64,000 bases of DNA. Source: Candidatus Saccharimonadota bacterium. Its GTDB lineage: Bacteria; Patescibacteriota; Saccharimonadia; Saccharimonadales; Saccharimonadaceae. Each line of letters opens with the position of its first letter. The first letter of the stretch is position 1. The stretch lies in contig JAUCSC010000001.1 in NCBI GenBank assembly GCA_030445265.1, forward strand, positions 372,001-436,000. Direction: 5' to 3'. The position numbers and the translations under genes are program-made. Positions 42,217 to 43,943 of the stretch are shown in pieces. A model generated the notes under the pieces. That model was not told the origin of the DNA and made no database searches. It was given only the letters and a program-made list of their open reading frames with translations.

Positions 42217-42291
42217 AGGGGCATAGTACAACGGTTAGTATATGGGTCTCCAAAACCTAGGATCGTGGTTCGATTCCACGTGCCCCTGCCA
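42217..42291 (+). tRNA. tRNA-Trp (CCA)
   Basis: Acceptor AGGGGCA/TGCCCCT, anticodon loop CTCCAAA with anticodon CCA, T-arm CGTGGTTCGATTCCACG and encoded CCA after discriminator G. trpS lies about 11 kb away. Confidence 0.95.
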
Positions 42292-42292
42292 A

Positions 42293-42329
42293 AAAAATAA
42301 GATCATCCTTTAGTGATGGTCTTATTTTT
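42293..42329. terminator. Terminator after tRNA-Trp
   Basis: AATAAGATCATC (42296-42307) pairs with GATGGTCTTATT (42315-42326) with one G-U pair, flanked by A-run and T-run. It can work in both directions. Confidence 0.75.
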
Positions 42330-42347
42330 ATTACGGAGCTATGTGAA

Positions 42348-42422
42348 GCGCACCACGATCGGCCGGCAAAGCCGGACATGATCGTGGTGCGCGTACTGTC
42401 AAATCTTCGATTTGTACAGTAC
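42348..42422. repeat. Two adjacent strong hairpins downstream of tRNA-Trp
   Basis: The first is a perfect 13-bp inverted repeat, GCGCACCACGATC (42348-42360) with GATCGTGGTGCGC (42380-42392), whose loop holds a smaller CCGGC/GCCGG stem (42363-42367, 42371-42375). One base later begins the second: GTACTGT-CAAATC (42393-42405) pairs with GATTTG and ACAGTAC (42409-42414, 42416-42422) with one bulged T. Such paired GC-rich stems resemble REP- or small mobile-element-type structures, but no second copy was noticed in this window. Confidence 0.6.
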
Positions 42423-42617
42423 CTGGCCGATAATAGAACTAGCATAGTTATATCATCGAAGCGTCGGACACGTGCCCTATCTTCTCAAAACACGACGCAA
42501 ATGTATCTAATGATAGTTGAGTTCTCTCTACTAGGAATATGTGCCTCAATAAAGCCACAAATATATAGGCATCTTACTTATGGTTGTCAGTTGGAATATT
42601 TTGCCCATAATTAGGTC

Positions 42618-43169
42618 ATGGACGATAAAAAGAACAACCCACCTACAAGAACAGAAATGTTGAATATGATGATAAATATCTCGGCAGAATATGTTACGGT
42701 TGTCGAAAAAACTGAAACTGCAAAACTGGACCAAAAACGCGACATAATGAGAGATCTTTCTAATGCAGGTCTAGCGCTTCTTGGAGGAGTGCTCACACTA
42801 GCAACCGTAGGACAACAATTCATCCGCACACCAGCAGCAGTTTATACAGGCGTATCCGTCGTGGCTCTTGCGGTAATCACCGCATTCTTTTTTAGAATTA
42901 GAATAAGCAGACGATTTACGAAACTTATAGATAAACAATATAACGACTATTCAACCCGTGCAAATGCTATTAGGGGAGTCATGTCTTCTCCGCAAGAGAA
43001 CGAACAACGCGCTCAATTTGAATTGGACAGAACTATACAGGACTATCCTTTTAGCTCCGAGCCACTTACTCGAATGCTTTCTATAAGTGAAATCATTGTG
43101 TCTTTAGCGCTATTCATCGGCACGATTATTACAGCGGCGGGTCTAGTCCTAAGCATAAACATTAGTTAG
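42618..43169 (+). CDS. Unknown membrane protein (183 aa)
   Basis: This AT-rich gene encodes a 183-residue protein with a polar N-terminus, two membrane segments around residues 52-95 (LALLGGVLTLATVG and VYTGVSVVALAVITAFFF), a charged middle loop of about 55 residues, and a C-terminal membrane segment (about 155-180). I do not recognise the family. TTGTCA (42584-42589) and CATAAT (42606-42611) form its promoter; the predicted transcription start coincides with the ATG. Codon use looks more AT-rich than the neighbouring housekeeping genes, so it may be acquired. Confidence 0.7.
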   Translation: MDDKKNNPPTRTEMLNMMINISAEYVTVVEKTETAKLDQKRDIMRDLSNAGLALLGGVLTLATVGQQFIRTPAAVYTGVSVVALAVITAFFFRIRISRRFTKLIDKQYNDYSTRANAIRGVMSSPQENEQRAQFELDRTIQDYPFSSEPLTRMLSISEIIVSLALFIGTIITAAGLVLSINIS

Positions 43170-43280
43170 TCTAGTCCGCATTTCATCCACTTTTATCTGC
43201 ACGATAGTATTAAAACATAAGTGTATCGACATTTTTATGTTTTTATGTTAGAGTATTTCATGTTACTCGAAAGGTAGTGC

Positions 43281-43943
43281 GTGGAATTACTTGTTATCAT
43301 ATTCTTCTTATCAGTTTTTGTACTTGCGCCTATTATCGGTGGGATAGCTCTCTTTGCATCTATAGCTCATAGGCCACAGTTTACTAAGTCTAAACTTGCT
43401 GAGTTAAAAGTAAATGAGGCGTTGCGTAAAATCGATCTTAAATCATATGTCGTCTTTGAAAATGTAATTCTCCCATCTACCGGAAATACAGCTCACACCG
43501 AGATAGACCATATAGTAGTATCCCCTTATGGAATATTTTGTATAGAAACGAAGTCTCACAGTGGGTCGATCTATGCCTACGAAAAAAATAAGTCATGGGT
43601 TCAATATCTTGGGAATCAAAGATATACATTCCATAACGCTTGTCGTCAGAACTATAAACACATAAAAGCCATAGAGGCCTTAGTGGGAACAATCTTGAAG
43701 GCACCTGTTCACTCTTTTGTGGTTTTCCCAAATGCGCACAAAGTTGTTACTGATGGCAAGAGTGTATATGCCAATGTGAATACTGTAGTAGAGCGTATTC
43801 ACCAGCATCAACGACCTGTATATAATATTGATGAGTGTACGCGTATATTGAGATCCTTGGCTTATGCAAGTAGTAAAAAGGAATCGCTATCTTACATACA
43901 TATCGAAGAAGTACAATCTTACTTGGCTAATACATCTTCCTAA
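43281..43943 (+). CDS. Membrane-anchored NERD-domain protein (nuclease-related)
   Basis: This 220-residue protein starts with GTG behind AAAGG. An N-terminal membrane segment (about residues 3-28) is followed by a NERD domain. The expected conserved residues are visible in NTAHTEIDHIVVSPYGIFCI and the following ETK, matching the E...D...E-x-K core of PD-(D/E)xK-like nucleases. QNYKHIKAIEALVG is also typical. The family's activity is not well defined but it is thought to be a nuclease or to act in DNA processing. It sits in an AT-rich patch after tRNA-Trp with other unknown genes. Confidence 0.85.
   Translation: MELLVIIFFLSVFVLAPIIGGIALFASIAHRPQFTKSKLAELKVNEALRKIDLKSYVVFENVILPSTGNTAHTEIDHIVVSPYGIFCIETKSHSGSIYAYEKNKSWVQYLGNQRYTFHNACRQNYKHIKAIEALVGTILKAPVHSFVVFPNAHKVVTDGKSVYANVNTVVERIHQHQRPVYNIDECTRILRSLAYASSKKESLSYIHIEEVQSYLANTSS

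What the first reader, a model, noticed from the sequence alone, without database searches (positions are those of the whole stretch)
42348..42422. Tandem GC-rich hairpins after tRNA-Trp
Two stems of 13 bp each lie back to back in noncoding DNA, the first nested with a smaller stem. This exceeds what a terminator needs (one already lies at 42293-42329). It resembles REP/BIME-like or miniature mobile sequences, or a small structured RNA.
Basis: partly seen in the sequence, partly recalled or inferred. Interest (0 to 1): 0.5.

Follow-up and report, generated by a model that had tools for sequence, protein, structure and literature searches.

The report
Hairpin mini-elements inserted after tRNA genes
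The hairpins are part of a roughly 185-base non-coding insertion that recurs behind many different tRNA genes in Saccharibacteria, each time with a copy of the local tRNA's 3' end; it looks like a tiny mobile element of a sort we could not match to any known family, and what moves it is unknown.

Summary
The hairpins are real and far beyond chance (z -8.7), but are the middle of a longer element, about 42292-42477: tRNA-Trp | terminator hairpin | antisense copy of the T-arm | sense copy of the T-arm's 5' half | hairpins 2 and 3 | copy of the tRNA 3' end. The layout recurs behind tRNAs of ten isotypes in Saccharibacteria: 27 of 199 relatives carry this module; 46 of 60 copies lie at most 178 nt behind a tRNA gene. 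Hairpins 2 and 3 are kept by compensatory changes (14 of 27 pairs). Empty and occupied tRNA-Trp sites in one genus show that a sister family is a true insertion duplicating the tRNA's 3' end. REP/BIME is not supported: 19 of 27 carriers lack RAYT, and 12 of 15 RAYT loci inspected have unrelated palindromes. Tests for integron attC, Cas1 and IS110 also failed. Best reading: a non-coding, non-autonomous mobile element at tRNA 3' ends whose folded strand is recognised by an unidentified enzyme. A structured-RNA function remains open.

The parts
42217..42291 (+). tRNA-Trp (CCA), target gene; its 3' part (about position 43 to CCA) matches the copies inside the element
   Evidence: ARAGORN; Rfam RF00005
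42292..42477 (+). Whole element as inferred: everything between the CCA of tRNA-Trp and the end of the second tRNA 3'-end copy
   Evidence: layout shared with the other copies; boundaries inferred
42293..42329 (+). Hairpin 0: terminator-like palindrome directly after the tRNA
   Evidence: z -5.76 on 42290-42330
42345..42360 (-). Antisense copy of the local tRNA T-arm (14 of 16 nt), left arm of hairpin 1
42348..42392 (+). Hairpin 1, 13-bp perfect stem with a nested GC stem
42380..42391 (+). Sense copy of the 5' half of the tRNA T-arm (11 of 12 identical to the tRNA)
   Evidence: family D1
42393..42422 (+). Hairpin 2, 13 bp with bulged T at 42415; conserved core CAAATC..GATTTG
42428..42458 (+). 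Hairpin 3 (slightly decayed in this copy), loop GCA
   Evidence: covariation; read
42384..42465 (+). Match to covariance model R1 (hairpins 2 and 3 with flanks)
   Evidence: G000:C1:414384-414465, 88.7 bits, (this copy is one of the 18 rows of the model, so it matches by construction)
42469..42477 (+). Second copy of the tRNA-Trp 3' end (CACGTGCCC), truncated here; runs to the CCA in other copies
   Evidence: 9 nt; maximum 7 in 20 shuffles

Best explanation
The hairpins belong to a non-coding, non-autonomous mobile element of about 150-190 bp that inserts at the 3' end of tRNA genes in Saccharibacteria. SHOWN: the recurrent layout behind tRNAs of ten isotypes; a copy of the local tRNA's 3' end after the module, which in the best-kept copies starts in the T-loop; an antisense copy of the local T-arm (clear in some copies, significant over the set); tandem units; covarying hairpins; for a sister family at tRNA-Trp, an empty and an occupied site in one genus. 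INFERRED: insertion leaves the tRNA intact and gives it a terminator at its CCA; the tRNA-sense strand, folded into hairpins 1-3, is what the recombination or transposition enzyme recognises; the enzyme acts in trans, since in the 57 copies whose preceding tRNA end is seen the gap is too short for a gene; new units enter next to the intact tRNA and push older ones downstream. My estimates: inserted mobile-type element, about 0.8; hairpins acting as folded-strand recognition sites, about 0.45.
For: Of 60 copies, 46 lie 60-178 nt behind a same-strand tRNA (Trp, Glu, Ser, Arg, Asp, Leu, Met, Pro, Asn, Val); 11 of the other 14 follow a tRNA-end-like fragment, some decayed, plus a hairpin 0. In 44 copies the exact match to the cognate tRNA 3' end has median 13 nt against 4 for other isotypes. 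Antisense T-arm copies are cognate over the set (0 of 2000 permutations for positions 43-60): 19/20 in L119, 19/20, 16/17 and 18/24 behind tRNA-Lys, -Glu and -Asn of this genome, 14/16 in the window. Same-genus tRNA-Trp sites: empty with a shared flank in G015 and G003; in G014 a unit plus a full copy of the tRNA end precedes that flank; the flank also follows the second tRNA copy in 2 of 7 tRNA-Trp copies of the present family, L033 and L097. The pair L110/L111 in one genome sits behind tRNA-Met and tRNA-Glu (SH-aLRT 99, quick tree) with similar hairpin 0. Tandem units in L029, L080, L110, L164. Covariation 14 of 27 pairs; 0 of 500 shuffles and no slid version comes near. G-U 87 against A-C 22 cells (60 distinct rows; 19 against 7 on the MAFFT alignment), as expected if one strand folds.
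Against: No mobilising enzyme was identified: PF00589 hits are none in 5, one in 20 and two in 2 of the 27 carriers (the single ones, open frames of 306-357 aa, I take to be Xer, untested); large serine recombinases are absent in 7 of 27, including the genome with ten copies (that genome is 68% complete), and the one serine-recombinase island delimited has a tRNA block starting in the D-loop, not the T-loop. The empty/occupied comparison is clean only for the sister family. At tRNA-Asn (L184) the repeat runs on through the terminator, which a duplication ending at the CCA does not explain. The sense T-arm copy alone is not significantly cognate (290 of 2000 permutations). Modules still cluster weakly by isotype (25 changes, shuffled mean 30.5). 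No strain-level data show movement. Covariation also fits an RNA function. The window's copy is partly decayed, and its downstream flank matched no empty site in the loci compared.
Confidence: 0.5

Rival explanations
1. A structured RNA gene appended to tRNA genes: the unit is transcribed and processed like, or pairs with, the tRNA (sense and antisense T-arm copies, CCA-like end), and spreads because it does something useful.
For: Strand-biased covariation (G-U 87, A-C 22); hairpins kept over large divergence; a terminator-like hairpin follows the second tRNA end in several copies, e.g. L184, L110, L164, L080; antisense copy of the local T-arm.
Against: Patchy presence, 1 of 17 in the genus; a terminator-like hairpin separates it from the tRNA promoter; Rfam gives only the tRNA above threshold; several different hairpin modules occupy the same slot. 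No expression data were available.
Confidence: 0.22
2. Ordinary attachment-site scar: the units are attR/attP arms of islands brought by T-loop ('class II') tyrosine integrases, the hairpins being arm-type binding sites, with cargo and integrase lost.
For: The duplicated block of the best-kept copies starts in the T-loop and runs to the 3' end, as in class II sites (PMC1762012, passages read); larger stretches of genes lie between stacked units in L078 and L079.
Against: In the 57 copies whose preceding tRNA end is seen no gene fits between it and the hairpins; one module family serves ten isotypes, whereas for Ms6 a one-base difference from the 26-base core prevented integration in BCG; most carriers have at most one PF00589 hit; the one tyrosine-integrase island delimited, in a same-genus genome without this module, repeats at least the last 45 nt of its tRNA-Arg and shows no such module.
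Confidence: 0.18
3. REP/BIME repeats spread by a RAYT transposase.
For: Hairpin 2 has a conserved bulged base, and 8 of 27 carriers have Y1_Tnp hits; one lies beside a tRNA-Glu that carries a unit (L204).
Against: 19 of 27 carriers lack Y1_Tnp hits, among them G032, G039, G103 and G127, 98-99% complete with 3-4 copies; the 12 RAYT loci inspected, of 15 found, have palindromes of their own, unlike the units by eye; the model finds only the known unit there, next best E 0.049; copies sit at tRNA ends.
Confidence: 0.02
4. Local replication error: direct-inverted-direct triplication of the tRNA end by template switching, not a mobile element.
For: Sense, antisense and sense copies of the local tRNA in a row; the tRNA-Asn repeat includes the terminator.
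Against: Hairpins 2 and 3 are homologous across isotypes and genera, which local copying cannot give. It could still explain the tRNA-derived parts.
Confidence: 0.06

Closest known systems
tRNA-integrated genomic islands and prophages, class II (T-loop) attachment sites (e.g. mycobacteriophage Ms6)
   Same: Insertion at a tRNA 3' end; identity block from the T-loop to the end of the gene; tRNA stays intact.
   Different: About 150-190 bp, no genes, no integrase, ten isotypes served by one module family, antisense T-arm copy, covarying hairpins.
Integron cassette arrays with attC sites
   Same: Hairpin units in tandem next to a primary site; apparently newest unit nearest the site (inferred).
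   Different: No R'/R'' core-site pairs (0 of 44 elements), no IntI recognised, no cassette genes, target is a tRNA gene.
REP/BIME and RAYT
   Same: Short imperfect palindromes with a bulged base.
   Different: Located at tRNA ends; no RAYT hit in 19 of 27 carriers; flanking tRNA copy.
E. coli rtT repeats of the tyrT locus (recalled; one search found no paper, one paper with a single mention, listing only)
   Same: Tandem units behind a tRNA gene, each holding a copy of the tRNA 3' end.
   Different: Hairpin modules shared across isotypes and genera; antisense T-arm copy. Sequences not compared.
Casposons (recalled: tRNA 3' end as target)
   Same: tRNA 3' end as target with a duplication of similar size.
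   Different: No Cas1 hit in 26 of 27 carriers; no genes.

Membership tests
REP/BIME with RAYT | RAYT (Y1_Tnp) in the same genome | tested here: not met
   0 hits in the window's genome (77.55% complete); 8 of 27 carriers positive
REP/BIME with RAYT | RAYT gene flanked by the same palindromes | tested here: not met
   12 of 15 RAYT loci inspected: other palindromes; the only strong model hit there is the known unit near one of them, next best E 0.049
REP/BIME with RAYT | dispersed intergenic copies | tested here: not met
   46 of 60 copies at most 178 nt behind a tRNA, 11 more behind tRNA-end-like fragments
Class II tRNA-integrated element | duplicated tRNA 3' end, block starting in the T-loop | tested here: met
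   the start varies between copies (about positions 53-61), 58-59 in most of the best-kept ones
Class II tRNA-integrated element | encodes a tyrosine integrase | tested here: not met
   units too short for a gene; PF00589 hits none, one or two per carrier
Integron cassette / attC | R'' RYYYAAC and R' GTTRRRY core sites (motifs recalled) | tested here: not met
   0 of 44 elements; shuffled mean 0.6
Integron cassette / attC | IntI integrase | tested here: inconclusive
   PF00589 found in 22 of 27 carriers; the IntI-specific domain was not tested
Casposon / Cas1 | Cas1-type integrase | tested here: not met
   hit in 1 of 27 carriers
IS110 / bridge RNA | DEDD IS110 recombinase | tested here: not met
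   0 of 27 carriers
Known Rfam RNA family | covariance-model match above gathering score | tested here: not met
   only tRNA
Miniature mobile element (generic) | multiple copies with flanking duplication and an empty site | tested here: met
   empty site shown for a sister family; for this family only 2 of 7 tRNA-Trp copies have the same flank
Miniature mobile element (generic) | autonomous partner with the same ends | tested here: not met
   none seen among the 60 copies in the fetched loci

The most novel reading that the evidence does not exclude
A previously undescribed kind of genetic element: non-coding folded-strand cassettes that use the T-arm of many tRNA genes as landing site, build sense-antisense-sense copies of that tRNA's 3' end on arrival, and are moved in trans, perhaps by the cell's own Xer recombinase or by an RNA-templated step (an 18-19 nt duplicate, positions 58/59-76, is also what reverse transcription of a tRNA 3' end stopping at m1A58 would give; recalled, not tested, and some copies start elsewhere).
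Probability: 0.25. Interest if true: 0.85.

Novelty: new variant of a known kind. Interest (0 to 1): 0.62.

Why it matters
Saccharibacteria have very small genomes, yet these units recur behind tRNA genes of ten isotypes. If they move, one non-coding structure can use many tRNA genes without harming them, unlike integrases that are tied to one tRNA. That would make a concrete question testable: which enzyme reads the folded strand. If instead they are RNAs, they are a new tRNA-linked RNA family carrying antisense copies of the local T-arm.

Tried and rejected
REP/BIME with RAYT: rejected. Integron attC motifs: absent in 44 elements. Cas1 and IS110: in 1 and 0 of 27 carriers. Large serine recombinases as the mobiliser: unlikely, since 7 of 27 carriers have no PF07508 hit and an 8.4-kb island in G005 has a tRNA-Trp block that starts in the D-loop. 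Dedicated tyrosine integrase: not found; an island in G009 repeats at least the last 45 nt of its tRNA-Arg (the comparison was limited to 45 nt), and no tRNA copy was found near the second integrase of G050 and G166. Phage origin of the module: a pattern scan of viral contigs gave 7 hits, none with a tRNA in the stretch held and, by eye, none with hairpin 3. Rfam: nothing above threshold beyond tRNA. Of 20 genome-contig hits to the hairpin-2 pattern, 14 have the module and layout and 6 are chance matches in records titled as other bacteria. Literature: nine searches were answered; their listings showed nothing on such elements; passages were read in two papers.

Rows dropped: of 61 model hits the reverse-strand overlap in L090 was left out before the 60; for the tree also L116 (weak, no tRNA fragment) and L085 (taken as the same copy as L084, both at contig ends). 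In the own-genome scan a 10-nt match behind tRNA-Thr (L173) was set aside because it lies in the neighbouring tRNA. Of 15 RAYT hits 12 were fetched. Weak controls: tree support is low (33 of 55 inner branches open, quick method); the G-U count on the model-fitted alignment leans towards the model and includes the L090 overlap and L116; pairing of the CCA in hairpin 0 is only modestly enriched, 19 of 44 against 7 of 40; cognate antisense for positions 61-76 was reached by 1 of 2000 permutations, for 61-73 by none, and the sense T-arm copy alone by 290 of 2000. The permutations ignore that some copies are related.

Full report
Observation. Both stems are present at the stated coordinates: 42348-42360/42380-42392 is a perfect 13-bp stem, and 42393-42422 is a 13-bp stem with one bulged T. 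Together (42345-42435) they fold to -50.9 kcal/mol, z -8.7 against shuffles. A terminator-like hairpin precedes them (42293-42329) and tRNA-Trp ends at 42291.

Wider anatomy. Reading on, a third hairpin spans about 42428-42458, and 42469-42477 repeats nine bases of the tRNA-Trp 3' end. The left arm of stem 1 with its flank (42345-42360) matches the antisense of the tRNA T-arm at 14 of 16 positions, and 42380-42391 is a sense copy of the T-arm's 5' half, 11 of 12. So the unit reads: tRNA, terminator, antisense T-arm, sense T-arm 5' half, two more hairpins, tRNA 3' end.

Copies. A BLAST search of the own genome found a second copy behind tRNA-Glu, and relatives gave more behind other tRNAs. A pattern scan of genome contigs (84,980 species by the tool's description) gave 20 hits; 14 have the module and layout, in records titled Saccharibacteria, Saccharimonadia, Patescibacteria or just bacterium, and six are chance matches in other bacteria. 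A covariance model from 18 copies found the module in 27 of 199 relatives (17 of 140 good genomes), but in only 1 of 17 genomes of the own genus, with up to ten copies in one genome. In 379 genomes drawn across the phylum it was in 8, all of the own family; the relatives search also found it in seven genomes of other families of the order.

Position. Of 60 copies, 46 lie 60-178 nt behind a same-strand tRNA of one of ten isotypes. Ten have no upstream tRNA in the stretch held and four lie more than 1 kb from one. Of these 14, eleven directly follow a tRNA-end-like fragment (some decayed) and a hairpin 0; L116 does not; L085 is cut by a contig end; and the outer L029 unit starts at a contig end with TCACCA. 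In the 44 copies closest to a tRNA, the sequence after the module matches the cognate tRNA 3' end over a median of 13 nt, against 4 for other isotypes. The best-kept examples copy 18-22 nt starting in the T-loop.

Antisense copy. Over these 44 copies the segment between terminator and module matches the antisense of the cognate tRNA better than that of other tRNAs (0 of 2000 permutations for positions 43-60, 0 for 61-73, 1 for 61-76). The best cases are 19/20 (L119), 19/20 (tRNA-Lys of this genome) and 16/17 (tRNA-Glu of this genome). The sense T-arm copy alone is not significantly cognate (290 of 2000).

Own genome. Four of the 30 tRNAs found carry such units: Trp and Glu with this module (the Glu one behind what looks like a remnant of the Asn-type module), Lys and Asn with other modules in the same slot. 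In the ten-copy genome 7 of 26 tRNAs show a tRNA-end copy of 11 nt or more within 500 nt. At tRNA-Asn the repeat runs on through the terminator; I cannot tell whether this is the remnant of a second unit or a longer duplication.

Insertion. At tRNA-Trp in the same genus, G015 and G003 have an empty site (CCA followed by AGC.TAAG); G014 has a unit of a sister family followed by a full copy of the tRNA end and then that same flank; G006 and G002 carry similar units by eye. The flank was recognised in 3 of 13 same-genus loci compared and in 2 of 7 tRNA-Trp copies of the present family (L033, L097), where it follows the second tRNA end; it was not found at the window's own copy. Within genome G076 the module pair behind tRNA-Met and tRNA-Glu is a sister pair (SH-aLRT 99) with similar terminators, and in G072 similar modules sit behind Arg, Ser and Pro tRNAs, each with the local tRNA end. 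Units occur in tandem, and stretches of genes separate units in L078 and L079.

Structure. On 18 sequences 95.5% of cells pair, 14 of 27 pairs have changes on both sides, and no shuffle or slide comes near. G-U cells exceed A-C cells (87 to 22 on the model-fitted alignment; 19 to 7 on the MAFFT alignment), which suggests that the tRNA-sense strand folds, as RNA or as single-stranded DNA. The shuffle controls ignore relatedness, so I lean on the slid controls and on the variety of pair types.

Mechanism. Shown: recurrent insertion-like units with local tRNA copies and conserved hairpins. Inferred: a mobile non-coding element whose folded strand is recognised by an enzyme acting in trans. The enzyme is unknown. 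PF00589 hits number none in 5, one in 20 and two in 2 of the 27 carriers; PF07508 is absent in 7, and one serine-recombinase island has another type of tRNA block; Cas1 is in 1 of 27, IS110 in none, Y1_Tnp in 8, with unrelated palindromes at the 12 loci inspected. Integron core motifs are in 0 of 44. Several genomes are incomplete (the window's 77.55%, G072 68%), so an absence in one of them means little.

Comparison. The T-loop start of the duplicated block is like class II integrase sites (PMC1762012; passages read), but there is no gene, no integrase and no restriction to one isotype. Nine answered literature searches listed nothing on such units; the library lacks most subscription papers, so this is weak evidence of novelty.

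Verdict.

Noticed in passing
L139 (G005), L142 (G009); fragments in L138 (G001) and L130 (G004): A large serine recombinase gene runs antisense into tRNA-Trp, so that its C-terminus (WQGHVESNH.. or a close variant) is encoded by the antisense strand of the tRNA gene. The enzyme's C-terminus would change on excision. The two fragments are assigned by likeness only.
   Followed up: partly
L145 (G005:C6:62047-62106): Right end of an 8.4-kb island at tRNA-Trp with a 60-nt tRNA copy starting in the D-loop.
   Followed up: partly
L079 3139-4770: A serine recombinase (PF00239, PF07508) whose reading frame ends inside the hairpin unit behind tRNA-Glu.
   Followed up: partly
42618-43943: Two ORFs in DNA of about 0.38-0.41 GC (surroundings about 0.48): one without Pfam match, one with a NERD nuclease-related domain, directly behind the element; possibly acquired.
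   Followed up: partly
L184 (tRNA-Asn) and L104: Restriction-endonuclease-like ORFs (my reading, no family search) lie close behind units, so these tRNA flanks may collect defence genes.
   Followed up: no
L172, L184, L134, L147, L168, second unit of L110: Several different hairpin modules occupy the same slot in units of the same layout.
   Followed up: partly
L203-L214: RAYT-like genes of unit-bearing genomes have short palindromes of their own beside them, in most cases near-perfect, unlike the units; one (L204) lies beside a unit-bearing tRNA-Glu.
   Followed up: partly
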